Part shown: one piece after another, positions 39,607-63,410 of the stretch | Numbering within the stretch: the stretch's first letter is position 1 | Layout of the letters: every line of letters starts with the position of its first letter | NCBI RefSeq assembly: GCF_031656915.1 | Contig: NZ_CP134227.1 | Location: forward strand, 1,612,001-1,676,000 | Source of the DNA: Nocardioides marmorisolisilvae | GTDB lineage: Bacteria; Actinomycetota; Actinomycetes; Propionibacteriales; Nocardioidaceae | DNA length: 64,000 nt | Direction: 5' to 3' | Notes under the pieces: model-generated | Seen by the model: only the letters and a program-made list of their open reading frames with translations | What the model was told of the DNA's origin: nothing | Databases searched by the model: none | Translations under genes and position numbers: made by a program

Positions 39607-41304
39607 TCAGCGGTGGGTGCTCGGTGATTGGCTGAGCCCCGTCCGCACCGCAGCGGTGGCGCGGACGTCGTCCTCGTTGTAGTCGAGCAGTCGACGCCGG
39701 GCCCGGGCGCCGTCCGCCCCGTCCGCGCGCGCCTCCTCCAGCCAGAGCTGCGACTGCAGGCCGCCCGGATCGTCGTCGCGCCAGTGGAAGCCGAACGCGG
39801 GAGCGACCCGCTTGATGCCGAGCCCGTGCGCGCCGAAGTAGTGCGCCGAGACCAGCTTGTGCAGGTCGACGAACAGCGGTAGCAGGTCGGCCACGGCCGT
39901 CGTACCGAGAACTCGCTTGAGCTGGGTCGCCTCCACCGGGGAGTAGTGGTAGACCAGCACCCGCTCCCCGCGGGACCGCGCCTCGGCGAGCAGCTCGCGC
40001 AGCCAGGCGACGAACTGGCCGGCGAGGGCACGCTCGCCGGCCTCGTCGACGACCTCCCAGGACACGATCGGCCGGTACTGCGACGAGCCGCCATGGTGCA
40101 CCAGCGCACCCCAGAGATAGACCCGTTGGTCGACACCCCACTCGAGGTCGAAGTCCACCTCGACCTCGGCCCGCGGCACCGGGATCGGGCCGGTGCCGAT
40201 CCTCTCCATCTCGACCCCGTCACGGATCATCCGGGCCCGCCTCACCACCCCGGCGAGCCGGTCGGGCGCGTCCGGCAGGTGCGTGACCTCGGGCAGGTAG
40301 TCGGCGAGGAACGCCTCGTCCGTCGGGTCGAGGGACGCCAGCGACGCCAAGGACGCGTGCCCGAGCCGGTCCAGGACCAGCCATTCTCGGCGCGACAGCG
40401 TCCCGCTGGTGATCTGTGCACTGGCCGCGTCAGGGGCATCGGTCAGGCAGAGGTCAAGCCACGGGCAGCTGGTGCACTCGTCGGTGAACACCGGGACCAC
40501 CAGCGGCTCCGGGTCATCGGCCCCGCCCGTGCGCGCCGCGGCGACCCCGGCCACCCGCACCCGGAAGTCGTGCTCGTGGTCGTACCGTTCGAGCGCACTG
40601 CGACGCGCCGAGCCACGGCTACGGGAGTACGTCGTGAAGGCCGGCCGATCCAGGTCGTGCCATACCAGCACCATGCCCGAGGGATCGATCTCGGGCAGAG
40701 CGTCGGTGCCGATCACGAACCCGCATGCGGAGTCGGCTGCGTGACCGCAGGCCTGCAGCATCCGCCAGTAGTGGGCCAGCTGCAAGAAGTCGTCCGCGCG
40801 CTGACTGACCCGCATCGCCCGGCCGGCGAGCACGCCAGTCACGGCCGGCGCGGCCGGGCCGGACCAGGTCAACGCCCCCTTCCGGGCGGCGCGGGTCATC
40901 AGGTGGGCCTTGACCTCACCGGGGACGTAGCCGGCGCCGACCCGGACCAGGAGGTCGGGCCGCCCCTTCCGGCCACCGTCGACGTCGTCGGGCAGCCAGC
41001 CGCCGATCACGACCTCGGCGCCCGAGCGCATCGCAGCCACGGTCGCCTCGACCGCCGCCGTCCGACCGTCCGCCGCGGAGACATCGACGTAGCGGTCAGG
41101 TCCGAGGGCCGCACGCAGCCGCCCGAGCACGTCCTGCTCGTGCACCAGACCGGCCTCCACCCGGAGCTGGATCGGTGCCGGCAGCACCCACTCGCCCTTC
41201 GGGACGGTCGGGTCCCACTCGTTGTGCACCCGGCGGGCGCACCGCTTGGCGTCGTATGCGCCCAGTAGCACTGTCGCACCGTTGGTCGCCGGTCCTCCCG
41301 TCAC
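39607..41304 (-). CDS. RecB-like PD-(D/E)XK nuclease fused to an RNase H-like domain (TM0106 type)
   Basis: 565 residues, GTG start. The N-terminal half has a RecB-type nuclease core with GRPDLLVRV and YVPGEVKAHL as the D...ExK catalytic motif. A cysteine group (DECTSCPWLDLCL) resembles the Fe-S-associated CxxC of this class. The C-terminal half begins AEVEVDFDLEWGVDQRVYLW and ends LLDYNEDDVRATAAV, the first and last acidic motifs of a YprB-type RNase H/DEDD exonuclease. The start overlaps the stop of the SNF2 helicase (GTGA), so helicase and nuclease are probably produced in fixed ratio and may act together on DNA. Confidence 0.85.
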   Translation of the reverse strand: MTGGPATNGATVLLGAYDAKRCARRVHNEWDPTVPKGEWVLPAPIQLRVEAGLVHEQDVLGRLRAALGPDRYVDVSAADGRTAAVEATVAAMRSGAEVVIGGWLPDDVDGGRKGRPDLLVRVGAGYVPGEVKAHLMTRAARKGALTWSGPAAPAVTGVLAGRAMRVSQRADDFLQLAHYWRMLQACGHAADSACGFVIGTDALPEIDPSGMVLVWHDLDRPAFTTYSRSRGSARRSALERYDHEHDFRVRVAGVAAARTGGADDPEPLVVPVFTDECTSCPWLDLCLTDAPDAASAQITSGTLSRREWLVLDRLGHASLASLASLDPTDEAFLADYLPEVTHLPDAPDRLAGVVRRARMIRDGVEMERIGTGPIPVPRAEVEVDFDLEWGVDQRVYLWGALVHHGGSSQYRPIVSWEVVDEAGERALAGQFVAWLRELLAEARSRGERVLVYHYSPVEATQLKRVLGTTAVADLLPLFVDLHKLVSAHYFGAHGLGIKRVAPAFGFHWRDDDPGGLQSQLWLEEARADGADGARARRRLLDYNEDDVRATAAVRTGLSQSPSTHR

Positions 41305-44300
41305 GGGTCACCTCCTACGCGGTCGCCGGGGGCGTCGAACAGCGCCCGGACGTCGTCGGCGTCGATGGCTCCGTCGCCCGCGCCGCCGCCGTCGAGGACC
41401 CGGGCGAACAGCGCCGCCTTGCGCTCCTTGAGCGCGACGACCTTCTCCTCGATCGTGTCGGTGGCCACCAGTCGGTAGACCATCACCGGCCGCTGCTGGC
41501 CGATCCGGTGGGTGCGGTCGACCGCCTGCGCCTCGACCGCGGGGTTCCACCATGGGTCGAGCACGTAGACGTAGTCGGCCTCGGTGAGGGTGAGCCCGAC
41601 ACCGCCGGCCTTGAGGCTGATCAGGAAGGCGGGCGCAGCGCCGGTACGGAACCCCTCGATGACCCGCTGTCGGTCCCGAGTCCTGCCGTCGAGGTAGCAG
41701 GTCTCGATGCCCTCACGGTCGAGCCGCTCGCGCACCCGCTTGAGGAACGACGTGAACTGGCTGAACACCAGGGCCCGGTGCCCTTCGGCCGCGAGCTCGG
41801 TGAGGTGCTCGACGAGCAGGTCCACCTTGGCCGAGGCGACCTTGTCATGGGCCGGGTCGAGCAGCGCGGCGTCGAGGCTGAGCTGACGCAGCCGGGTCAG
41901 CGAACGGAAGATCGCGATCCGGTGCCGGTCGAACTCCTCGACGAGTCCGAGCACGGTCTGCCGCTCGCGCTGGAGGTGGGTGTCATAGATCCGGCGGTGC
42001 CGCGGCCCCAGGGTGACCTCCAGCAGCTGTTCCTGCTTGGGCGGCATGTCGGCGGCGACCAGGTCCTTGGTGCGGCGCAGCAGGAACGGCCGGATCCGGC
42101 GACGGAACCGGTCCAGTGCCGCCGCGTCGCCGGCCTCCACGGGCCGGACCACCAGGTCGCGGAACCGCTGCGGGGACGGGTAGAGCCCGGGCGCCACCAC
42201 GGACAGCAGCGCCCACAGCTCCATCAGCCTGTTCTCGAACGGAGTGCCGGTGAGCGCTACCCGGAACGGCGCGTCGATCCCGCGGACGGCTCGGTAGGTC
42301 TTCGCCTGATGGTTCTTGATCTGCTGTGCCTCGTCGAGGACCAGGCCGCCCCACGCGAGTCCGGCGTACGCCTCGGCTTCCAGCCGCAGCAGTGTGTACG
42401 ACGTCAGCACCAGGTCTGCACCCTCGGCGAGCTCGGCCACCGACTCGGCGCGCCGCGCACCGGTCCCCTCGACCGTCCTGACCACCAGATCCGGGGCGTG
42501 CTGAGCGGCCTCGGCGCGCCACGCGGTCACCACGCTGGTGGGCGCGACGACCAGGAACGGTGCTGCCCCCTTGGCGCGGGCGTGCGCCACCAGTGCGAGC
42601 GCCTGCAGTGTCTTGCCCAGGCCCATGTCGTCGGCGAGGATCCCGCCGAGGCCGGCCTGCCACAGGAACGCCAGCCAGCGGAAGCCGTCGTACTGGTAGC
42701 TGCGCAGGGTGCACGTCAGACCGGTGGTGGCGACCTCGGGCAGCCGCTCAGCCGACTGCAGCGCTCGGGCGGAGGCGACCCAGGCGGCCGCCTGCTCGTC
42801 GACCACCCCGAGCTCGTCGAGCTCGGCCCACGCACCGAGGTCGTGGCTGCCCACCCGCAGCCGCTCGCTCGGCTGGTCGGCCAGCTCGCCGGCGGCGGCG
42901 ACGAGCTCGGCCAGCCGGTCGAACGCAGGATGGTCGGCGCGAACGTGCAGCCCGCTGGGCAGGAAGATCCGCTCCGCCCGGCGGGTCAAGGCGGTGAGCA
43001 CGCTGGCCAGCGGCACCTGCTCGCCGTCGACGCGGATCATCACCTCGAGATCGAGCCAGTCGGTACGGCGGTCAGCCTCCTGCCCGTCCGGGCCCGCCTC
43101 GGGTCCGGCCAGGCTGAAGCTGATCTCCGGTGCGCCGACCGCGGGCCGGTAGTCGGGCTGGGTGCCCGTCTCCTCGACGTCGATGGCATCGTCGGCGCGG
43201 AGTCCGGGCAGCACGTCGTCGACGAACCGGAGCAGGTCGGCGCCGGTCCAGCGATGCTCGCCCCGCAGTCGTCCTCCAGCGTCGCAGAGCAGGTCGCGCG
43301 CGGCGTCGTCCAGCGTGAGCCGGGAGAGGTGTGAATCCTCGGCGTCGGTGCGGCGGACGTCGAGCATCCCGGCGCCGGAGTCGAGCGCGTAGCGGCTCTC
43401 CGCGCCGGCCACCGGGTAGGACCAGCCGAAGCTGGCCGCCGCCTGCCCCGGCGAGAGCCACTCCAGCTCGAGCACCAGCCTCGGCTCCGGCTCCTCCGGG
43501 AGCGGCACCGAGCCATCTGTCGACGTGGTCGCGAGCTGGCGTCGCAGCCGCGGCAAGAACGCGTCCTCGAACCGCTGTCGCGCCTCGTCCGGCACCACCA
43601 GCGGCTCGGTCCGACGCAGCAGCGCCTGCACCCTCTCGGGCAGCAGCCGCACCAGCGGCGCGAGGGTCAGCATCGAGGGCGCGGCTCGGCCGCCGCCCGC
43701 CGCGGTGAGCAGTGCGACCCCGTGGGCGGGGTTGCCGATCGGCTCGATCGCGTCGGCACTCCACGACCGGTCACCGACGCCGACGCCGAGACGCACCGAC
43801 AGTCCGGTCTCGGTCGAGCGCAGGTCGGCGGTCACCGCGACCGGCTCCTCGAGGAGCTCGACCTCGGCGATCCCCTCGCCGGGGACGAGCTCGATCCCGG
43901 CAGCACACACCCGCGTCAGCATCGGCCACAGCGCGGGCCCGACCCGGGCGAGATCCGCCGGACCGCCGTACGCCGGCCCCAGCACGGTGGCCAGCTCCGC
44001 GAGGATCTCGACCTGCATCGGGTCGTGCGCGCCGCCGTAGCGCAGGCCGTTGACCTGATGCCAGTCGGCGCCGGTCTTGATCCAGCGACCCAGCTTGCCG
44101 CGCTGCAGCGGGCGGAGCCGGATGGTGCGCACCGGGTGGTCGCTCCAGCGGTAGCGCGCGACCTTGAGGTCCACCTGGAGCGCGAGCGGGACGGCCCCGG
44201 TGCCCTCGGCCGAGCTGCGAGCCTCGAGCTCGAGAAGGGCGTCCTCCAGCTCGCCCGCCCACCGGTCGGGATCGGGTCCACCCTCCAGGAGGGCGAGGTC

Positions 44301-44588
44301 CCGGCGGGCCCCCAGGATCAGCGCGACGCCGTGCTTGCAGCCCAGCCCCACCGGGCAGTCGCAGACCGACCAGATCTCGGTGCCGTGCCGCATCGTCGCC
44401 GCCCGGACCGTGACGCGGTACGGCTCCGGCCGGGTGCCCCGGACACTGCCGATCAGCTCGACGTCCCCGCCGCGGGTGGTGGCGACGTCGAAGCCCAGCA
44501 CGCGCCCCTGGGCGACGTACGCCTGCGCACGCCGAACGGTCTCGCGACCGAACTCCTTGTCCAGAGCCGACTCCGGGATGTCGAGCAT
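41301..44588 (-). CDS. SNF2-family helicase with SWIM zinc finger (HelZ-like)
   Basis: 1095 residues. The N-terminus carries a SWIM zinc finger (SVCDCPVGLGCKHGVAL, CxCx(n)CxH). A long middle region unique to bacterial SNF2 proteins follows. The SF2 motor spans about residues 620-1070: LWQAGLGGILADDMGLGKTL (Walker A), LVVAPTSVV, LVLDEAQQIKN (DEAQ box), ALTGTPFENRLMELW, VFSQFTSFLKRV, LISLKAGGVGLTLTEADYV and DRTHRIGQQRPVMVYRLV. These proteins are dsDNA translocases. It overlaps the downstream RecB-like nuclease gene. TAGCCT lies six bases before the ATG, suggesting a leaderless start. Confidence 0.93.
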   Translation of the reverse strand: MLDIPESALDKEFGRETVRRAQAYVAQGRVLGFDVATTRGGDVELIGSVRGTRPEPYRVTVRAATMRHGTEIWSVCDCPVGLGCKHGVALILGARRDLALLEGGPDPDRWAGELEDALLELEARSSAEGTGAVPLALQVDLKVARYRWSDHPVRTIRLRPLQRGKLGRWIKTGADWHQVNGLRYGGAHDPMQVEILAELATVLGPAYGGPADLARVGPALWPMLTRVCAAGIELVPGEGIAEVELLEEPVAVTADLRSTETGLSVRLGVGVGDRSWSADAIEPIGNPAHGVALLTAAGGGRAAPSMLTLAPLVRLLPERVQALLRRTEPLVVPDEARQRFEDAFLPRLRRQLATTSTDGSVPLPEEPEPRLVLELEWLSPGQAAASFGWSYPVAGAESRYALDSGAGMLDVRRTDAEDSHLSRLTLDDAARDLLCDAGGRLRGEHRWTGADLLRFVDDVLPGLRADDAIDVEETGTQPDYRPAVGAPEISFSLAGPEAGPDGQEADRRTDWLDLEVMIRVDGEQVPLASVLTALTRRAERIFLPSGLHVRADHPAFDRLAELVAAAGELADQPSERLRVGSHDLGAWAELDELGVVDEQAAAWVASARALQSAERLPEVATTGLTCTLRSYQYDGFRWLAFLWQAGLGGILADDMGLGKTLQALALVAHARAKGAAPFLVVAPTSVVTAWRAEAAQHAPDLVVRTVEGTGARRAESVAELAEGADLVLTSYTLLRLEAEAYAGLAWGGLVLDEAQQIKNHQAKTYRAVRGIDAPFRVALTGTPFENRLMELWALLSVVAPGLYPSPQRFRDLVVRPVEAGDAAALDRFRRRIRPFLLRRTKDLVAADMPPKQEQLLEVTLGPRHRRIYDTHLQRERQTVLGLVEEFDRHRIAIFRSLTRLRQLSLDAALLDPAHDKVASAKVDLLVEHLTELAAEGHRALVFSQFTSFLKRVRERLDREGIETCYLDGRTRDRQRVIEGFRTGAAPAFLISLKAGGVGLTLTEADYVYVLDPWWNPAVEAQAVDRTHRIGQQRPVMVYRLVATDTIEEKVVALKERKAALFARVLDGGGAGDGAIDADDVRALFDAPGDRVGGDP

Positions 44589-55380: not shown

Positions 55381-56646
55381 TCAGGTGCGCCGGACGAAGC
55401 GGACGTCGCCGTTGGGCAGTCGACAGGCGGTGAAGCGAGGATCGTGGGCGAGGTGGTGATGGTGGCTGCACAACAGCACCCCGTCCTCGAGATTGGTGCT
55501 GCCTCCGGCCGCCCACGGCTTGTCGTGGTGGGCCTCGGTCCAGGCGGCCGGGATCGTGCAGTCCTCGGCACGGCAGCCGCGGTCGCGAAGCCGCAGCGCC
55601 TTGTGTTGGGACCGTGTGAACAGGCGGCTGCTGCGGCCGAGGTCGAGCACCTCGGACCTGCTGCCGAGGACGACCGGGACGAGTCGGGCGTTGCAGGCGA
55701 GCCGGCGTACCTCGCCGGCACTGAGCCGGTCGCTGTCGCCGTCGCCGGCGCCGAGCAGGTCGGCTGCCGCCAGCTCGGCGCGCAGCTGGTCGAGGGACAG
55801 GGTGATCAGCACCGTGGTGGCATCACCACCGTGGTCGGGGAGCTTCTCCGGGTCGAGGTGCTCGAGCAGGGAACAGAACGCCTCGCCGAGTCGACGCGGG
55901 TAGGGAACCCGGTCGATCGGCGGCTGGGGGTTGTCGGCCTCGCTGCCCAGGTGTCGAGGTGAGGCGAACGACTCGAGGTAGGTACACAGCCGCCTCGCCG
56001 CAGACTCCGGGAGGCGCCCGGAGATGCGAGTGGTGCCGTCGCCGAGGGGTCGGAGGCTCATCTGGGTCTTCTCCCGAGCATGCCGCTCCTCGTCGGCCAG
56101 CCGGCGACCTTCCTCCTCCTCGGCGACCTCGGGGGCAACGAGGTCGAGGATCCGACGTCCCACTCGGCGCAGCTGGCCGGGAGTCAGCTCCGCGGCGTAG
56201 CCGACGAGGGTCGCCTCGGCTCGCTCGAGGAGCTCGCGGCCGAGGCGGTCCGGCAGGGCGTCGAGCGCGCGGTCGATCACGCGGGCCTGGGCCACGTTGC
56301 AGCGACCACCAGCCAGCGCGTCGGCAAGTGTGAGTCGGTCTCGATCGAGGCTGCGCGCCAGCCGGGCGTCGGCGCGGGAGCTGTCGGCCTCGTTGCGGGT
56401 GTGGTGGGCGTACCAGGCGCCCACGTCCCGAGCGGCGTCGATCTCGGCCACGTCGGCTGCGGCGGCCATCACCTTCAACCGAAGCCCGGCCACCCGAGAC
56501 TCGACCACGGCCAGCTCACGCAGCGCTGCCGCCTTCTCCTCGGTCGACAGGTACGTCGCCTGGACGTCGACCACCTCATCGAGCCCGTTCCTGAGCCGGC
56601 TGACGCAAGCGAGGATCGGATGCTTCGGGAGTGGCGGTGCGGTCAT
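55381..56646 (-). CDS. DUF222/HNH endonuclease-like protein (13E12 type)
   Basis: 421 residues. The DUF222 domain fills the first 320 residues (LRNGLDEVVDVQATYLSTEE, GRCNVAQARVIDRALDALPD). The C-terminal HNH domain is CRAEDCTIPAAWTEAHHDKP followed by NLEDGVLLCSHHHHLAHD, with zinc cysteines and the catalytic HH. Such proteins are multicopy in actinobacteria (the 13E12 repeat family of mycobacteria) and many are SOS-regulated. The ATG at 56646 has GGAG six bases upstream; an ATG at 56670 would add eight residues but sits against a CCGCCCGG/CCGGGCGG hairpin. Confidence 0.9.
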   Translation of the reverse strand: MTAPPLPKHPILACVSRLRNGLDEVVDVQATYLSTEEKAAALRELAVVESRVAGLRLKVMAAAADVAEIDAARDVGAWYAHHTRNEADSSRADARLARSLDRDRLTLADALAGGRCNVAQARVIDRALDALPDRLGRELLERAEATLVGYAAELTPGQLRRVGRRILDLVAPEVAEEEEGRRLADEERHAREKTQMSLRPLGDGTTRISGRLPESAARRLCTYLESFASPRHLGSEADNPQPPIDRVPYPRRLGEAFCSLLEHLDPEKLPDHGGDATTVLITLSLDQLRAELAAADLLGAGDGDSDRLSAGEVRRLACNARLVPVVLGSRSEVLDLGRSSRLFTRSQHKALRLRDRGCRAEDCTIPAAWTEAHHDKPWAAGGSTNLEDGVLLCSHHHHLAHDPRFTACRLPNGDVRFVRRT

Positions 56647-56826
56647 CTGCTGCTCCGGTGTCGACGTCATCCGCCCGGCCGGGCGGATGCTGCGTCGTCT
56701 CGCCGGAGGCACCAGCGACGGTGCAATTACTGACCGCTTCGCGAGACTCTACCACCGGACCTTCGCGACCACCTTGTTTCCACTGGAGCTCCTCGATCCG
56801 ATGAGGTGCCCTCAGCCTACCATTAC

Positions 56827-56905: not shown

Positions 56906-58576
56906 TCAGATCCCCAACCGTGCCGCGACGTGCGGCCCGGCGATCTCTCGTACGACGTCGGGCTGACCGACCACGATCAGCTGGTCGGTCGCGCGCGACA
57001 TGCCGACGTACAGCTTCTCCCTCGATCGGTCGCGAGCGGTCGTCTCGTTGACGCAGAGCACGACGGCCGGACGCTCGAGGCCCTTGCACCCGAGCACGTG
57101 CCCGTAGAACACGTCGTCCTCCCAGAAGGTGCGCCAATAGCCGTGCTGGCCGAGCTCCTCAGTGAGGTTCAGCTGTTCGGTGTGCCGGGATCCGGTGGTG
57201 AGCAGCGCGATGTTGGCGGGGTGCCAGCCGACCTCGAGCAGGAGCTCGACTGCGTCATCGGCGGCGTCGAGCGGGTCGTCGGCCGGTAGGAAGCTGACCT
57301 CGACGCCCTCGCCGCCGCGTGGCGTCATCTGGGTCGGTGCCAGCGGGCCGAAAGCCGCGTGGATCTGCTTGGTGTTGCGCAGGTTGTGGTCGAGAACGAG
57401 CGGCACCAGGGGCACAGGCGGCCGACCGAAGCGCGCGAAGATGCGCTGGTTCTCGTCGGAGTAGATGTAGAGCCCGCTCTCCTCCTCGTTCTGCATCGCC
57501 CGCAGCAATGGCGTCCACCAGCTCTCTGCGAAGTCTTGGGCCTCGTCGACGACGAACGCGTCGAACCGCTTGTCGGGCGGGAGCTCCCGTGCGAGCTCGG
57601 CCATCATCGACGGCAGCCGCTCCTCCCAGAACTCACTGTCCTCGCGCTCTCCCCCTGGCGCCCCCCACGACCGGCCGAGCTCCTCGTAGGTGCCGACGAA
57701 TGCAGGCCTGGCGCGCTTGGGCCACCCCTCGACCTCGCGCTTGAGGAACTCGCCGAGACCGATCGAGTAGCACAGCAGCGCCACTCGCTGCGGTGGCTCA
57801 CCGTCGCGACCGCGGGACAGCTCCTTGGCCTGGGCGAGCGCGAGCACCGTCTTCCCACTCCCGGCGCCGCCGCGCACCTCGACCCGGTTGAGCAGCCTTG
57901 TCACGCGCAGCAGCTGCGCCTGCTCGGCGGTCAGCCGGTCCGAGGCCGAGCGCCGTTGGGCGGCCTCCGCGTTGAGGTCCCGCTCGGTGAAGCTGCGGCC
58001 GTGCAAGACCTGCGAGAGCAGCACCAGGTCGTCGTACGACGGGGCCTTGGTGCCCCGCGCCATCCCCCGGGCGTTGTTCGCGACCCGATCGGCGAGGTCC
58101 GCCATGTCGACGCGGTCGTGCAGCGCCCAACGCGGGCAGTCCGGTGTGCCGAAGTCGCTGGAGAAGTCGGAGTACGGCGTCACGACGCCGTGTGCCCACG
58201 TGATCCTGCCGCGGCTCCATCGCGGGTCGGACTCGACGTAGTCGCGCAAGGCGTACTTCGCGTCCTTCGCCTGCTCCACCGGATGGATCCGCCGCTCCCC
58301 GCCACCGGACTGGTGCCAGTGCTCGCCGTCGTACCAGACCGACCCGCCCTTGACCTCAAGGACGACCGCCCCGACATCGGGAAGCAGTACGACGAGATCC
58401 GCCTCGTGGTCCTTATGCTCGTCGATCACCCACTGGTTCGCGATCAGGATCGCGTCCGCGGGCAGGGTGTCGCGCAGTCGCTGCCACACCTCACGTTCCG
58501 CCTCGGAGGCGAACTGTGGTTGCTCGGGACGACAGTTCGGGGTCATCTGGTCAGCAGAACACAGGTCGATCGTCAT
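56906..58576 (-). CDS. NERD-domain UvrD/Rep-like helicase
   Basis: 556 residues. The N-terminal NERD domain has EADLVVLLPDVGAVVLEVKG (D...ExK nuclease core). The rest is an SF1 helicase: Walker A RGGAGSGKTVLAL, DEAQDFAESWW (Walker B), YSDENQRIF (motif III), DHNLRNTKQIH (motif IV), YGHVLGCKGLERPAVVL (motif V) and KLYVGMSRATDQLIV (motif VI). At 556 residues it lacks most accessory subdomains of PcrA. The ATG at 58576 overlaps the stop of the upstream nuclease gene (ATGA), so it is the third cistron of the cluster that starts at 60397. Likely acts on DNA damaged or invaded; role inferred. Confidence 0.88.
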   Translation of the reverse strand: MTIDLCSADQMTPNCRPEQPQFASEAEREVWQRLRDTLPADAILIANQWVIDEHKDHEADLVVLLPDVGAVVLEVKGGSVWYDGEHWHQSGGGERRIHPVEQAKDAKYALRDYVESDPRWSRGRITWAHGVVTPYSDFSSDFGTPDCPRWALHDRVDMADLADRVANNARGMARGTKAPSYDDLVLLSQVLHGRSFTERDLNAEAAQRRSASDRLTAEQAQLLRVTRLLNRVEVRGGAGSGKTVLALAQAKELSRGRDGEPPQRVALLCYSIGLGEFLKREVEGWPKRARPAFVGTYEELGRSWGAPGGEREDSEFWEERLPSMMAELARELPPDKRFDAFVVDEAQDFAESWWTPLLRAMQNEEESGLYIYSDENQRIFARFGRPPVPLVPLVLDHNLRNTKQIHAAFGPLAPTQMTPRGGEGVEVSFLPADDPLDAADDAVELLLEVGWHPANIALLTTGSRHTEQLNLTEELGQHGYWRTFWEDDVFYGHVLGCKGLERPAVVLCVNETTARDRSREKLYVGMSRATDQLIVVGQPDVVREIAGPHVAARLGI

Positions 58577-59483
58577 GCAGGCTCGTCGGACGGACTGAGG
58601 TCGAGATACCTGCGTCGGAAGGTGTCCCGCCATCCGTCATGCCCCTCGATCGAATCGACCACCTCCTCGATCGAGCCGAAGACCAGGTACTCCGGGTCGA
58701 CCAACTCGGCCGCAACGGTGTCCACCGTCGACCTCGCCGTGACGTCGTCGGCGAGCGCCACGACGACCGACCGACCGCGCGTGTGCTCGCCCGCTCGCTC
58801 GACGAGCTGCGCGAGCAATGTGTTGTACCAGAACTGGCGAAGCCCCATCTTGTCCAGTGCCTCCGCCGCCCCTGCATGCCAGCCTCCGTCAGCCGTCGCC
58901 GTGCGGAACTTCTCCGCCGCAGGCTTGACCTGTGACTTCGCGAGGTTCTCGGCGTACTTGCACTCGATGCCGAGGAATCCGGTCCCTCTGCCGGTCCGGT
59001 ACTCGATGAACGCGTCAAACGCCGATCCGGTGAATGTTCCCGTCGCCGGAGCCCACTCGAGGCGAATGCTCGAGACGCCGTCCGCGTCCGGTGCCAACGA
59101 CCGAATCCAGGGCAGCGCTGCCTCAGGGTGAGCGGCCAGGTAGCCGAACAGGTTGAAGCACAGGGGTTGCGAGGACAGCAGGTTCCTGCGCACTCGGTCC
59201 ATCTGGATCATCCCGGGCCGCTTGCCGGCGTCCAGATCCGCTTCGGCGGCTCCCAGGGACTCCCGCGCTTCCGGTGTCCAGAGATTCACGGCAAGGTCGA
59301 CGCCGTCCGGCAGCATGCTCACCACGGGCTTCGAGCGAGTCGCGATGTTCCCTGCCGGCACACCGCAGTGCGTCTCGCGCCACCACCCCTGGTGCCGGCG
59401 AAGCCGCCGCTGCCATTTGTTGCCTGCCCGAGCAGGACAGCGGCCGCACGGTCCAGCTGGCCGACGGTGAGCCCCCGGTTCAT
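58573..59483 (-). CDS. PD-(D/E)XK nuclease-like protein, apparently frameshifted near the N-terminus
   Basis: The main frame (58573 up to a GTG at 59361) carries a restriction-endonuclease-like core: SAFDAFIEYRTGRG then GFLGIECKYAENLAKS, a D...ExK motif, and a C-terminal helical part. This resembles PGN_0703-type putative endonucleases. That frame has no start codon at the expected upstream position, although KWQRRLRRHQGWWRE looks coding. A neighbouring frame begins with ATG at 59483 overlapping the upstream stop (ATGA) and reads MNRGLTVGQLDRAAAVLLGQ, a convincing N-terminus. The two join only if one base is missing around 59400-59425. Either the gene is broken, the base was lost in sequencing, or a -1 ribosomal shift occurs. 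Coordinates therefore include a frame change. Confidence 0.65.
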
Positions 59484-60397
59484 CGGCGACCGCCCGTGCG
59501 GAGGGCCAGATCGTCCGCGACGTCGTCGAGCGTCTCCAGGAACATCGGCACGATGAGCTCAAGGTGCTCGCCGACGAAGGGCGAAGCCGGCAGGGTCATC
59601 GTCATGAGCACGTCGCGGCCGACCAACACGAACTTCGTCATCCGGCGGCGGTTGAGCACGGCCACCTCCACGGCGGTCTGGCGGCGACTGCGGACATCGT
59701 GCACCAGCGGCGCCATCACGTCGATGACCGGACGATCGCTGCGGGCGATGAAGCACACCTGGGCTTGGCCGAGTCTGATCCAACAGTCGCCGTCGTCGTC
59801 GGTCGTGACCCCGTCCTCGGACAGGGCCTCGAGAACTGGTTCGAGCATGATCAGCAGATCCTCGCGCGAGCTCGGCCGCAGCAGCGGCGGAGTGGTCGTC
59901 GACTCACTCATCACCAGGCGCGTCCACGCACCGCCGTCGTTCGCACCCTCGATCTCGAGGAACGTCGGGTCGATGACGCCGAACACCTCGCGCAGCACGC
60001 CGACGGCGACGGGCGCGACCTCTTCAGGCCCGAACTCGTCGTCGTGCAGCGCGCGGTGCCACACCGTGGTGGTCTCCTCCTCGAACGGCTCGAACACGAC
60101 TGCGCTGCCCGGGGTCTCGAAGGATCGCTCGAGCAGGCGCGCCTCGAGCTCGGTGTCGAGCTGGTGAGCCGGAGCGAGCTGCTGGTTGCTCGGCGCGCAG
60201 AGCAGCACCGCCTGGTCGGCACGCACCACCTGCAACCACGGCGAACAACCCTCGTCGTCCTCCTCCCAGGTGGTCACGTCGAGCGTCAGGACGGCCGCCG
60301 CCGGCACGCTTGCGACGTACTCGCCCAGTCGCCGCTCGAACTCCGCCCATGCCTCTTCGGTGGCTGCGTCCATCTCACTGCTCTCGATCTCGTTCAT
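59480..60397 (-). CDS. YbjN/TY-Chap chaperone-like protein
   Basis: 305 residues, acidic. Two or three similar alpha/beta units are visible. The N-terminal one contains FERRLGEYVASVPAAAVLTL and CSPWLQVVRADQAVLLCA. The middle one (about 180-240) contains SREDLLIMLEPVLEALSEDG and CWIRLGQAQVCFIARSD. The C-terminal one contains VLVGRDVLMTMTLPASPFVG. These resemble the YbjN/type III-secretion chaperone (TY-Chap) folds that bind peptides. The ATG at 60397 has GGAAGGGG upstream. The stop overlaps the nuclease ATG by four bases, making this the first gene of the three-gene cluster. It may chaperone or inhibit the nuclease; that is inference. Confidence 0.7.
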   Translation of the reverse strand: MNEIESSEMDAATEEAWAEFERRLGEYVASVPAAAVLTLDVTTWEEDDEGCSPWLQVVRADQAVLLCAPSNQQLAPAHQLDTELEARLLERSFETPGSAVVFEPFEEETTTVWHRALHDDEFGPEEVAPVAVGVLREVFGVIDPTFLEIEGANDGGAWTRLVMSESTTTPPLLRPSSREDLLIMLEPVLEALSEDGVTTDDDGDCWIRLGQAQVCFIARSDRPVIDVMAPLVHDVRSRRQTAVEVAVLNRRRMTKFVLVGRDVLMTMTLPASPFVGEHLELIVPMFLETLDDVADDLALRTGGRR

Positions 60398-60511
60398 CTC
60401 GACCCCTTCCTCCCGGCGCAGACCCAGGATCACCCCCACCCCCGACACAATCCGGCGTGCAAATGGTCCGTTCCAGTGCCGCGCAAGGGTCGAAGACGCG
60501 AGACTCGGCGC
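60398..60511. promoter_or_regulatory. Divergent promoter region between the nuclease-helicase cluster and the WYL pair
   Basis: 114 nt shared by two divergent operons. Toward the WYL genes, GAGACT lies six bases before the GTG (leaderless pattern). Toward the chaperone gene there is a GGAAGGGG ribosome-binding site. No palindrome long enough to name as an operator is seen, but a WYL regulator would be expected to bind here. Confidence 0.5.
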
Positions 60512-61426
60512 GTGACCAGGAGTGCGGGACGCGACCAGCGCGAGCCGATGGAGCGGCTGGTCCGGCTGGCGGTCGCACTGCAGAGCTGCGGCCGTGTCGG
60601 GATGCCGTCCGACCAGCTGGTCCGAATCGCCGGCTTCGAAAGCAGCGCCGACCCGACCAGCCAGCTCGGTCGCGAGCTCCGTCAGATGCGCGCCCTCGGC
60701 TGGCAGATCGACAACATCGCTCCACACGGCGAGGACGGCGTCTACCGGATGACCAGCGTGGACAACCGGCTACGCCTCAAGCTCACCCCCGCGCAGCAGG
60801 CCGCTTTGCAGCGCGCCGTACTTCTCGCCGACCGCGCCGACCTCGTCGAACGCCTGGGCCTGCCGGCGACCCCGCGCACCGCTGCGGTGAGCGCCGTCGT
60901 GCCGGGCGGCCCCCACGACGCCCGGCTGGCGACGGTGATCCGCGCCGTGAGGATGCGCTGCCTGCTGCACTTCTTGTACGCCGGCTCGACGCGCACCGTG
61001 CATCCGGACTCGGTCCGCGCGCAGAACGGCACCTGGTACCTCCGCGCCTTCGAGGACACCGCCAACCGGATGAAGGTCTTCGTCGTCTCGCGGATGTCCG
61101 AGGTGTCGGCGGACAGTCCCCAGACTGCGAGGACGTTCCCGCGCGAGCGCCACCCCGGACTGCACCCGATGAGCTGGCAGATCGACCCGCCGGTGGAGGT
61201 CACACTGCGTGCACCGGTCGAGTACGTGCCCGACGTCGAGCGTTGGCTCGGCAGGCCCGTGTCGTACCGCGACCTCGGTGGCGAGGTGGAGCTCATGTAC
61301 GTCGTCACCCATCGTGCGGCGCTGCGAGCACGGATCTACCAGCTCGGCACCCGCGTGCAGCTGGTCGGCCCCGAGGACGTACGCAGGGAGATGCTGACCG
61401 AGCTGACCGAGATGGCGGGCGAGTGA
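60512..61426 (+). CDS. WYL-domain transcriptional regulator (PafB-like)
   Basis: 304 residues from the GTG at 60512; an ATG at 60548 is an alternative. A winged helix at the N-terminus (MERLVRLAVALQSCGRVGMP, LGRELRQMRALGWQIDNIA) is followed by a WYL domain in which the motif reads NGTWYLRAFEDTANRMKVF, and a WCX-type C-terminal extension (LRAPVEYVPDVERWLG). WYL proteins sense nucleic acids or nucleotides and control DNA-damage or phage-defence genes. The stop overlaps the next ATG (TGATG), so the two are made as a pair, as PafB and PafC are. Confidence 0.88.
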   Translation: MTRSAGRDQREPMERLVRLAVALQSCGRVGMPSDQLVRIAGFESSADPTSQLGRELRQMRALGWQIDNIAPHGEDGVYRMTSVDNRLRLKLTPAQQAALQRAVLLADRADLVERLGLPATPRTAAVSAVVPGGPHDARLATVIRAVRMRCLLHFLYAGSTRTVHPDSVRAQNGTWYLRAFEDTANRMKVFVVSRMSEVSADSPQTARTFPRERHPGLHPMSWQIDPPVEVTLRAPVEYVPDVERWLGRPVSYRDLGGEVELMYVVTHRAALRARIYQLGTRVQLVGPEDVRREMLTELTEMAGE

Positions 61427-62415
61427 TGGCTGCGCCGCCGAAGTACGTCCAGCGGATCGCTCGCCTACCCGAGGTGTTCGAGGTCCTCGCTGCTCATCCC
61501 GACGGTCTGCCGATCGCCGACGTCGCGAGGGAGCTCGGCGTACCCGCCGAGGAGCTCCGCGAGGACCTGCTCGCCTTCTACAGCGCCGATGTCGGCACGC
61601 TGCTGCTCGGCCTCTCGCGCCCCGACGTGCTTGAGTTCCTCGGCACCGACGGCGACGACGACCCGGCGACCGCCGAGGTGGTCCGCATCGTCGACCAGCG
61701 GCCGATCGACGAGCTCGGCGTGGAGTACGTCGATGCCGCGGAGCTCGCGCTCGTCTACACCGCCGCGCGTGGGCTGCTGGAGCTCGACCCGGACGATGAG
61801 GACCTGAAGGGTGCACTCAGCGTGCTCACCGAGACCATGCTCGGCGACCCAGTCCGGCCGCGTCCGCCCGCAAGCTGGAACCGTCCGCTCGAGGCTCTGG
61901 AGGATGCAGTGACCGACCACCGCCGCGTGCGCATCGTCTACTCGCGCACCTGGCACGAGGGCGTCACCGACCGGGTGATCGAGCCCTACCTGCTCGTCCA
62001 GACCCGCCGCGGCTGGGAGGTCGACGCCGGCCCCCCCGACGCCGGTGGCCGCCTCCGCACCTTCCTGGTGTCGAACATCCGCGACTACGAGGTTCTCGAC
62101 GAGGAGTTCACCGCGCCGCCCGAACTCGACCGGCTGCTGGAAGCCCAACGCGCGACCACGCGAGTGCGGGTGCGGATCCCGCACGCCGCCCGCTGGGCCA
62201 CCGACTTCTACGCCGAGCGCGTCGCGATCATCGCCGACGACGAACTCAGCGCCACCCTCGACCTCGACCTACTGCCCCCGGTCGAGCAACGCATCGGCCT
62301 GCTGCTCCTCATCGCCGGAACGGACGCCGCGGTGCTCGACCCGACCCGCCTGGTGACTGCCGGCCCGAATCTCGCCGCGGAGCTGCTCGCTCACCATCGG
62401 GGCCACAGCGCTTGA
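61426..62415 (+). CDS. WYL-domain transcriptional regulator (PafC-like)
   Basis: 329 residues. N-terminal helix-turn-helix (VFEVLAAHPDGLPIADVARE, LGVPAEELREDLLAFYSADV), a helical middle region (DAAELALVYTAARGLLELDP) and a WYL-type domain (DHRRVRIVYSRTWHEGVTDR, then RRGWEVDAGPPDAGGRLRTF) in which the W-Y-L triad is altered to W-E-V. Partner of the preceding gene, with which it shares one base. The altered triad suggests that only one subunit of the heterodimer binds ligand. The genuine proteasome-linked pafBC normally sits near pafA and tatAC, which are absent here, so this is probably a paralogous pair. Confidence 0.87.
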   Translation: MAAPPKYVQRIARLPEVFEVLAAHPDGLPIADVARELGVPAEELREDLLAFYSADVGTLLLGLSRPDVLEFLGTDGDDDPATAEVVRIVDQRPIDELGVEYVDAAELALVYTAARGLLELDPDDEDLKGALSVLTETMLGDPVRPRPPASWNRPLEALEDAVTDHRRVRIVYSRTWHEGVTDRVIEPYLLVQTRRGWEVDAGPPDAGGRLRTFLVSNIRDYEVLDEEFTAPPELDRLLEAQRATTRVRVRIPHAARWATDFYAERVAIIADDELSATLDLDLLPPVEQRIGLLLLIAGTDAAVLDPTRLVTAGPNLAAELLAHHRGHSA

Positions 62416-62504: not shown

Positions 62505-63053
62505 TCAGCGCACGTTCCACTGAGCCGTCTGGCCGAACCCGCTGTCCATCGAGAACTGCACCTGCGCGATCCTCGCCCTGACCGGCACCTGGAACACCAG
62601 ATATCCGAGCGCTCTGTTGCCCGGCGCCAGCTTCACCGAGGTGGGCAGCTGCTGGCCGGCGGCGACCTGGTCGAAGAACGCGTCAGCCTCGTACTGCTGC
62701 CCCGCCTTGTCGACCACCTTGGCACCATTGCTCGGCGCATCGTCGTACGCCGCCGTGCCGGTGTTCTTCAGCACGAACTGGACAGCGACGAGCCGCTTGC
62801 CCTTGTCAGGCTTGACGAACTGGTCGGACGAGCTCGTGTTGGTCACCCGCTTCGCCGTCACCTGCAGCTTCGACCCATCATCGTTGCCCTTGACGGTGAC
62901 GGGCTGACCGACGCGGGCAGACGCCGCCTTACCGCCCTTGGCATTGTCGGCCTTGGTGTTGACGTCGGTCGCCGCGCATCCGCTCAGCGCGATCGCGATC
63001 GCCGCGACCGCCGTTGCCAGCGCCAGGCGCCGGCCCTTCTTCATGGTGTTCAT
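62505..63053 (-). CDS. DUF4352 lipoprotein
   Basis: 182 residues. The signal peptide LALATAVAAIAIALSGCAAT ends in the lipobox LSGC, so the mature protein is lipidated and sits on the outer face of the membrane. The mature part is a DUF4352-like immunoglobulin fold: GKRLVAVQFVLKNTGTAAYD and GYLVFQVPVRARIAQVQFS, found in actinobacterial surface proteins of unknown function. The ATG at 63053 has GAAGGGG upstream; the first 18 bases of leader plus start are identical to those of the chaperone gene at 60397. Confidence 0.9.
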   Translation of the reverse strand: MNTMKKGRRLALATAVAAIAIALSGCAATDVNTKADNAKGGKAASARVGQPVTVKGNDDGSKLQVTAKRVTNTSSSDQFVKPDKGKRLVAVQFVLKNTGTAAYDDAPSNGAKVVDKAGQQYEADAFFDQVAAGQQLPTSVKLAPGNRALGYLVFQVPVRARIAQVQFSMDSGFGQTAQWNVR

Positions 63054-63410
63054 CTCGACCCCTTCGTTGGAAGTATCCGCCCCACCTGGAGCGGTGAACG
63101 GACCGTAGGGAGACCACCCGACAGAACGGTCCGAGTCCTCACCGCGAGCCACTGGACCCGAGCGATCGCGACGTTGACGCGGTTGCGGTCGCTGTTGCGG
63201 CGGGCAGCTCGATCTCGGCTTCAGCGCCGAAGGCAAAGCCCAACGTGCCCACGTGGCCCCTCCCTCCTTCCAAACCCGAGTTCTGTCGGACCCTGTTGCC
63301 AAGGTCTCGACTCGTATCTATTTCCTCGAGCCGGGGGTCGACGTCATGTCTCCAGCCACACCGCACGGTGCCTCGCGCGCAATCGTCACAAGCCTGTTCG
63401 CGAGCCTGCG
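63054..63410. other. 357-nt gap, mostly without a convincing gene
   Basis: It contains the promoter regions of the lipoprotein and the truncated downstream gene. A lower-GC stretch (TCGTATCTATTTCCTCG, around 63313-63329) could be promoter sequence. Apart from one short reading frame listed separately, I see no gene, RNA motif or repeat. Confidence 0.4.
63139..63252 (-). CDS. Possible small peptide gene
   Basis: 37 codons from a GTG at 63252 that has an exceptionally good AAGGAGG about ten bases upstream. The predicted product is Ala/Thr/Ser-rich (ELPAATATATASTSRSLGSS) with no recognisable domain. Only the ribosome-binding site argues for translation. Confidence 0.25.
   Translation of the reverse strand: MGTLGFAFGAEAEIELPAATATATASTSRSLGSSGSR

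What the first reader, a model, noticed from the sequence alone, without database searches (positions are those of the whole stretch)
56906..62415. Candidate defence or DNA-damage module: chaperone-like protein, nuclease, NERD-UvrD helicase and a divergent WYL regulator pair
Three genes overlap by four bases each (YbjN/TY-Chap-like, PD-(D/E)XK nuclease-like, NERD-UvrD helicase) and share a 114-nt divergent promoter with two coupled WYL regulators. Nuclease plus helicase under WYL control is a pattern known from phage-defence and DNA-damage loci, but I do not recognise this combination, in particular a YbjN-like chaperone as the first cistron. It may hold the nuclease inactive or present a peptide signal. 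It is the best candidate in the window for an undescribed system.
Basis: partly seen in the sequence, partly recalled or inferred. Interest (0 to 1): 0.78.

Follow-up and report, generated by a model that had tools for sequence, protein, structure and literature searches.

The report
DNA-damage-wired, eroded ADP-ribose conflict operon
These genes are a worn-down, patchily inherited bacterial conflict operon of the kind that normally carries an enzyme removing ADP-ribose marks, and its promoter looks like those of the cell's DNA-damage response, so it is probably switched on when DNA is broken or a phage attacks.

Summary
The genes are real, but one detail fails: the ATG overlapping the end of the TY-Chap gene is not the nuclease start. 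It opens a 54-codon frame whose first 21 codons are a relic of an ADP-ribosylglycohydrolase (ARG); it scores 31.6 bits, best of 4218 window starts (next 7.6). Relatives keep TY-Chap–ARG–helicase at this position. An apparent deletion joined the ARG start, out of frame, to the nuclease, whose body and catalytic residues survive.

TY-Chap, rapidly evolving REases and WYL regulators were described in ARG-centred systems (Iyer et al. 2022), so the combination is a reduced variant of a known, untested kind.

New here is the regulation. The WYL pair is a paralogue of PafB/PafC (the true pafBC lies elsewhere in the genome), and the TY-Chap promoter has the PafBC architecture (TGTCGG-N10-[T/G]ANNNT). 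Matches to this motif in the genome precede recA, uvrB, sbcD, xseA and radA. TY-Chap genes carry it in 18/36 cases versus 46/1352 other genes. Where the extra WYL pair exists, matching sites cluster beside it (8 versus 0.27 expected) and shift from TGTCGG[T/C] to TGTCGG[G/A].

Prediction: DNA-damage-induced activation rather than derepression by ADP-ribose. The locus is patchy, not housekeeping. Phage defence is unproven.

The parts
59480..60397 (-). TY-Chap3 + TY-Chap1 predicted peptide-binding chaperone, first cistron
   Evidence: Pfam PF22552 9.3e-18 and PF22551 2.6e-27; ATG 60397 follows the -10 hexamer and a GGGAGGAAGG SD at a suitable distance
60426..60447 (-). PafBC-type DNA-damage promoter TGTCGG-N10-GATCCT driving TY-Chap (one mismatch to TGTCGG-N10-TANNNT, at the first -10 base)
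   Evidence: architecture equals tTGTCRgtg-8nt-TannnT of PMC5656591
59421..59483 (-). relic of the ARG (ADP-ribosylglycohydrolase) N-terminus, MNRGLTVGQLDRAAAVLLGQA, with ATGA coupling to TY-Chap
   Evidence: 31.6 bits, rank 1 of 4218 window starts, next 7.6; TY-Chap/ARG ATGA overlap in L138
59319..59483 (-). 54-codon leader frame starting at the ARG relic; its TGA overlaps GTG 59322 of the nuclease frame (GTGA)
58573..59424 (-). PD-(D/E)XK nuclease body (PDDEXK_13 / REase-ARP), own start lost; E169, D183, E200, K202 kept (P0002 numbering)
   Evidence: Pfam 1.6e-66 and 6.2e-26; alignment A3; intact homologue L053:9038-9991
56906..58576 (-). NERD + superfamily 1 (UvrD-like) helicase
   Evidence: Pfam NERD 8e-10, UvrD_C_2 5.6e-8; PADLOC RTasNERD-Hel 3e-32; Walker A GGAGSGKT, DEAQ box
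60512..61426 (+). WYL1, PafB-like regulator (WYL-WCX)
   Evidence: WYL 1.8e-9; hhalign to own PafB 90% over 281 columns
61426..62415 (+). WYL2, PafC-like regulator
   Evidence: WYL 2.6e-10; hhalign to own PafC 97.6%, E 3.8e-12
63102..63123 (-). exact TGTCGG-N10-TANNNT site before a predicted secreted lipoprotein (62505-63053), possible second local target

Best explanation
The locus is a reduced, ARG-less derivative of an ARG-centred (ADP-ribose) conflict system, wired to the DNA-damage response. Its WYL pair is a second PafBC that (by analogy with PafBC and SiwR) binds ssDNA made by damage or phage attack and recruits sigma-A RNA polymerase to a PafBC-type promoter in front of TY-Chap. The induced products are a TY-Chap that binds damaged or modified proteins, a NERD-UvrD helicase that opens or remodels damaged or foreign DNA, and an REase that cuts it. 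The ARG gene has been deleted here, leaving its first 21 codons fused out of frame to the nuclease, so the nuclease is either re-initiated at GTGA/ATG 59322-59316 as a truncated protein or no longer made. Shown: gene content, ARG relic, promoter architecture and its enrichment at TY-Chap genes, PafBC kinship of the WYL pair, patchiness. Inferred: ssDNA sensing, activation, biochemical roles, any phage phenotype.
For: ARG relic: 31.6 bits, first of 4218 window starts; most of the best blastp-short hits are ARG N-termini, L225 co-linear over 22 residues; the own genome has no ARG at E<=1e-20 while 31/148 relatives do. Complete operons: TY-Chap-ARG-Hel in L228, TY-Chap-ARG in L226 and L138; a same-genus island in G020 with NrtR-type regulator, ARPP, ARG, helicase, TY-Chap and WYL pair. 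Promoter: motif in own genome 20 sites versus 4 reversed controls, in front of recA, uvrB, sbcD, xseA, radA, dnaX; TY-Chap 18/36 versus 46/1352 other genes, P 4e-16. WYL pair: PafB/PafC paralogues; local site cluster 8 versus 0.27. PafBC and SiwR precedents: PMC11804915, PMC10693628.
Against: The window's own site has G instead of T at the first -10 base. No expression, binding or phage data. Canonical PafBC could read the same site, so the WYL pair's role is inferred. TY-Chap homologues of the order's second family (f2) examined lack the motif, so the wiring is lineage-restricted. For complete ARG systems the published reasoning proposes WYL/Nudix repressors sensing ADP-ribose (PMC9503650). 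The helicase family is mostly found alone.
Confidence: 0.6

Rival explanations
1. The operon is simply a member of the canonical PafBC DNA-repair regulon; the neighbouring WYL pair is unrelated to it or controls something else.
For: The motif is shared with recA, uvrB and others; TY-Chap operons in genomes without the WYL pair also carry canonical TGTCGG[T/C]G sites (L020, L053, L139, L142, L153).
Against: The pair is divergently adjacent in two genomes whose TY-Chaps are only about 30% identical (window, G020), and with the pair present the base after TGTCGG is G/A in 5/5 TY-Chap promoters versus 1/14 without it (Fisher P 5e-4); local clustering of the G/A-type sites.
Confidence: 0.25
2. A decaying remnant: after loss of ARG and of the nuclease start, the locus has no function left except a free-standing helicase and chaperone.
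For: Out-of-frame fusion, degraded -10 first base, a 35-aa helicase remnant next to the WYL pair in G012, own genome without ARG.
Against: TY-Chap, helicase, WYL pair and nuclease body have no internal stops; catalytic residues kept; TY-Chap-helicase operons without ARG in the same operon exist elsewhere (L217, L221, L046).
Confidence: 0.2
3. Classical ARG-system logic: the WYL proteins are repressors released by ADP-ribose, and the operon counters phage ADP-ribosyltransferases (Iyer et al. 2022).
For: Same gene set in ARG islands; published proposal (PMC9503650).
Against: The WYL pair is PafB/PafC-type, an activator class, and the site has the spacing of a PafBC activator promoter rather than an operator over a -35/-10 promoter; no ARG is left here to make an ADP-ribose signal.
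Confidence: 0.1

Closest known systems
ARG-centred ADP-ribose conflict systems with TY-Chap, REase, ARPP and WYL or Nudix regulators (Iyer, Burroughs, Anantharaman, Aravind 2022, PMC9503650)
   Same: TY-Chap1/TY-Chap3, REase-ARP/PDDEXK nuclease, helicase, WYL TF; ARG relic; complete ARG/ARPP/NrtR island in a same-genus genome
   Different: ARG deleted; WYL regulator is a PafB/PafC-type pair with a PafBC-type promoter; G020 has both a NrtR-type regulator and a WYL pair, whereas the paper reports Nudix and WYL TFs as mutually exclusive
PafBC of mycobacteria (LexA/RecA-independent DNA damage regulator)
   Same: Two WYL proteins in B-C order, stop/start coupled; promoter architecture tTGTCRgtg-8-TannnT
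   Different: Not next to pafA/pup/tatAC (that pair is at G000:C1 about 508-510 kb); patchy; about 20-29% identical; sites shifted to TGTCGG[G/A]
SiwR, WYL activator of M. smegmatis (PMC10693628)
   Same: Extra PafBC-related regulator controlling an adjacent operon in genotoxic stress
   Different: SiwR is a single gene with a DinB/YfiT-like operon and a GGA -26 element
NERD-UvrD helicases of candidate defence modules (PADLOC RTasNERD-Hel, GajB-like)
   Same: NERD + superfamily 1 helicase domains, PADLOC E 3e-32
   Different: No reverse transcriptase, no GajA

Membership tests
ARG-centred conflict system | ADP-ribosylglycohydrolase gene | tested here: not met
   No ARG at E<=1e-20 in the own genome; only a 21-codon relic at 59483-59421
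ARG-centred conflict system | TY-Chap chaperone in the operon | tested here: met
   PF22551, PF22552
ARG-centred conflict system | REase of the conflict-system type | tested here: met
   PDDEXK_13 1.6e-66, REase-ARP 6e-26, but reading-frame start lost
ARG-centred conflict system | Nudix or WYL one-component regulator | tested here: met
   Two WYL genes divergent from the operon
PafBC (orthologue) | Located in the pup-proteasome locus (pafA, prcBA, tatAC) | tested here: not met
   That locus with its own pafB-pafC pair is L026 (genes recognised by inspection)
PafBC-like WYL heterodimer (works like) | Two WYL proteins homologous to PafB and PafC over full length | tested here: met
   hhalign 90% and 97.6%
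PafBC-like WYL heterodimer (works like) | WYL-domain Arg/Tyr residues for ssDNA | tested here: inconclusive
   WYL1 keeps the Arg before the Pro, the WYL triad and the R...SR pattern; WYL2 keeps the first Arg but not the WYL triad; residue numbers not mapped on the structure
PafBC-like WYL heterodimer (works like) | Activates TGTCRG-N10-TANNNT promoters | not testable with these tools
   Site present and clustered near the pair in relatives; activation needs experiment
Gabija / DRT defence | GajA or reverse transcriptase partner | tested here: not met
   No such domain in the five proteins of the locus

The most novel reading that the evidence does not exclude
A patchily distributed, duplicated PafBC with a shifted promoter specificity (TGTCGG[G/A] instead of TGTCGG[T/C]) runs its own conflict regulon (TY-Chap/ARG/ARPP operons, VWA, AAA and RecB-like nuclease genes) in actinobacteria, so that ADP-ribose conflict systems are triggered by DNA damage (ssDNA) rather than by ADP-ribose.
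Probability: 0.45. Interest if true: 0.75.

Novelty: new variant of a known kind. Interest (0 to 1): 0.6.

Why it matters
It connects two fields that the paper searches did not show connected: predicted ADP-ribose conflict systems and the PafBC DNA-damage response. It gives a testable trigger (ssDNA via a WYL pair) and a promoter motif for a class of systems whose published model is ADP-ribose-sensing repression, and it shows the loss of ARG in one lineage by a visible scar.

Tried and rejected
Chaperone as nuclease inhibitor: rejected as general logic, because TY-Chap occurs mostly without this nuclease. Housekeeping locus: rejected, patchy. TTG 59562 as nuclease start: disfavoured by coding score (-14 versus +6.3 for the ATG frame) and because the homologue L053 begins about 20 codons before NRWQ. 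The pattern TGTCGGRGG alone as a marker of WYL-pair genomes: rejected, it is enriched in nearly all relatives as part of the PafBC motif; only the local clustering is informative. ARG operons as such carrying the motif: 1/17, so the link runs through TY-Chap. Helicase promoter: motif in only 7/74 helicase genes. PDB sequence searches of helicase and WYL proteins gave nothing. TY-Chap not found on plasmids. Structure prediction was not run: family matches already identify the domains.

Full report
OBSERVATION. The five genes exist. The helicase (58576-56906, minus) starts inside the nuclease stop (ATGA). TY-Chap (60397-59480, minus) carries TY-Chap3 and TY-Chap1 domains; the nuclease is PDDEXK_13 (1.6e-66) with a weaker REase-ARP match; the helicase is NERD plus UvrD_C_2; the two divergent genes are WYL proteins. 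The gap between TY-Chap and WYL1 is 114 nt. The claim that TY-Chap and the nuclease overlap by four bases is wrong: ATG 59483 overlaps the TY-Chap stop but opens a 54-codon frame, MNRGLTVGQLDRAAAVLLGQATNGSGG..., that differs from the nuclease frame and ends at 59321-59319.

THE SCAR. That short frame is the start of an ADP-ribosylglycohydrolase. Against 1830 predicted proteins of relatives' loci, most of the best blastp-short hits are ARG N-termini (L209, L225, L138, L226, L141), L225 aligned from residue 1 over 22 residues. A profile built from 23 ARG N-termini scores the frame 31.6 bits, first among 4218 start codons of the window, the second being 7.6. The coding score of 59483-59424 is +6.3 in this frame and -14.0 in the nuclease frame; after the junction the nuclease frame is the best. 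Relatives show the likely ancestral order: TY-Chap-ARG-helicase in L228, TY-Chap-ARG in L226, TY-Chap overlapping ARG by ATGA in L138. The own genome has no ARG at E<=1e-20. The simplest reading is a deletion from ARG codon 21 into the nuclease N-terminus. The nuclease body keeps E169, D183, E200 and K202 (P0002 numbering), but it has no clear start; re-initiation is possible at GTGA 59322 or ATG 59316 and would lose the invariant R55, Q58 and G71. An assembly indel cannot be excluded for the frame, but it would not remove the ARG signal.

KIND OF SYSTEM. TY-Chap1-3, rapidly evolving REases, helicases, ARPP and WYL or Nudix regulators were described together in ARG-centred conflict systems (PMC9503650). 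In G020, of the same genus, an island holds a NrtR-type regulator, ARPP-1, two ARG-family genes, the orthologous helicase (about 70% identical), a 30% identical TY-Chap divergent from the same WYL pair (56-59%) and four PafBC-type sites. TY-Chap therefore evolves much faster than its neighbours or has been exchanged. Distribution is patchy: helicase orthologues 5/58, WYL pair 11/148, TY-Chap 47/148, close nuclease homologue in one other genome (G102, with TY-Chap-helicase-nuclease in one operon), ARG 31/148. Across 80 named actinobacterial loci the helicase is usually alone; TY-Chap is near it in about ten and this nuclease in two.

REGULATION. Upstream of TY-Chap lies GTGTCGGGGGTGGGGGTGATCCT. 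Published PafBC promoters read tTGTCRgtg-8 nt-TannnT (PMC5656591), that is TGTCRG-N10-TANNNT. In the own genome the exact pattern TGTCGG-N10-TANNNT has 20 matches against 4 for the reversed pattern, and they precede genes that read as recA, uvrB, sbcD, xseA, radA, dnaX, several HNH-type genes and a DNA cytosine methyltransferase (gene names by sequence inspection). The window's TY-Chap site keeps the spacing and the A and T of the -10 hexamer (GATCCT for TANNNT) and deviates at one base. An SD (GGGAGGAAGG) and ATG 60397 follow at a suitable distance. TY-Chap genes of relatives carry an exact site in 20 of 39 cases (18 of 36 after removing duplicate loci) against 46 of 1352 other genes (Fisher P 4e-16). 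TY-Chap homologues of the second family of the order (f2) that were examined lack it.

THE WYL PAIR. WYL1 and WYL2 are full-length relatives of PafB (hhalign 90%) and PafC (97.6%), in the same order and coupled, while the canonical pafBC with pafA, pup, prcBA and tatAC sits at about 508-510 kb. In genomes with the pair, sites of the form TGTCGG[G/A]GG-N7-TANNNT cluster within 15 kb of it, 8 observed against 0.27 expected, four of them in G020. The base after TGTCGG is G or A in 5/5 TY-Chap promoters of genomes with the pair and in 1/14 without (Fisher P 5e-4; counts read by eye, and the genomes are not independent). I infer that the pair is a dedicated PafBC with slightly shifted specificity. 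WYL1 keeps the Arg and Tyr pattern used for ssDNA in PafBC (PMC11804915), which suggests, but does not show, ssDNA sensing. SiwR (PMC10693628) is a precedent for an extra WYL activator with its own operon.

MECHANISM. Most likely: DNA damage or phage attack makes ssDNA; the WYL pair (or PafBC) recruits polymerase to the TY-Chap promoter; TY-Chap, helicase and, if still made, nuclease are produced. This differs from the published model of ADP-ribose-sensing repressors. No step of the mechanism was measured here.

NOVELTY. Gene content is a reduced variant of a described, experimentally untested class. The DNA-damage wiring and the second PafBC were not found in the papers searched, but the library does not hold most subscription papers.

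Noticed in passing
window 41301-44588 (-), site 44616-44595: Large predicted protein (1095 aa, looks like a SWIM/SNF2-type helicase) with an exact PafBC-type promoter motif 28 nt upstream.
   Followed up: partly
window 62505-63053 (-), site 63123-63102: Predicted lipoprotein convergent with WYL2 carries an exact PafBC-type site; it may belong to the local regulon.
   Followed up: partly
L091, L095, L105, L106 (G000:C1 0.705, 1.555, 3.919, 3.945 Mb): Four 13E12/DUF222-like genes of the own genome each have an exact PafBC-type site upstream; a similar gene lies at window 55381-56670.
   Followed up: partly
L057 (G000:C1:1174000-1193999) and L056 (G103): Island with a large predicted helicase (PafBC-type site at L057:17737) and a remote homologue of the window's nuclease; looks like a restriction or DISARM-like defence island.
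   Followed up: no
L235 (G000:C1:2858000-2877900): Two TGTCGGAGG-type sites 7.5 kb apart, before a HIRAN-like protein and before a DNA cytosine methyltransferase with a Vsr-like gene nearby; possible trans targets of the WYL pair.
   Followed up: partly
L022 9175-10485, L049 11083-12348, L050 14231-15520, L053 13490-14785: A VWA-type gene recurs near the WYL pair or the TY-Chap-helicase-nuclease operon, with a PafBC-type site upstream in three loci.
   Followed up: partly
L022 8002-8106 (G012): A 35-residue remnant of the helicase C-terminus (86% identical) next to the WYL pair and a TY-Chap1 gene: another eroded copy of the module.
   Followed up: partly
phage record MT835574.1, 6762-8396: A faecal bacteriophage record encodes a 41% identical full-length NERD-UvrD helicase.
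   Followed up: no
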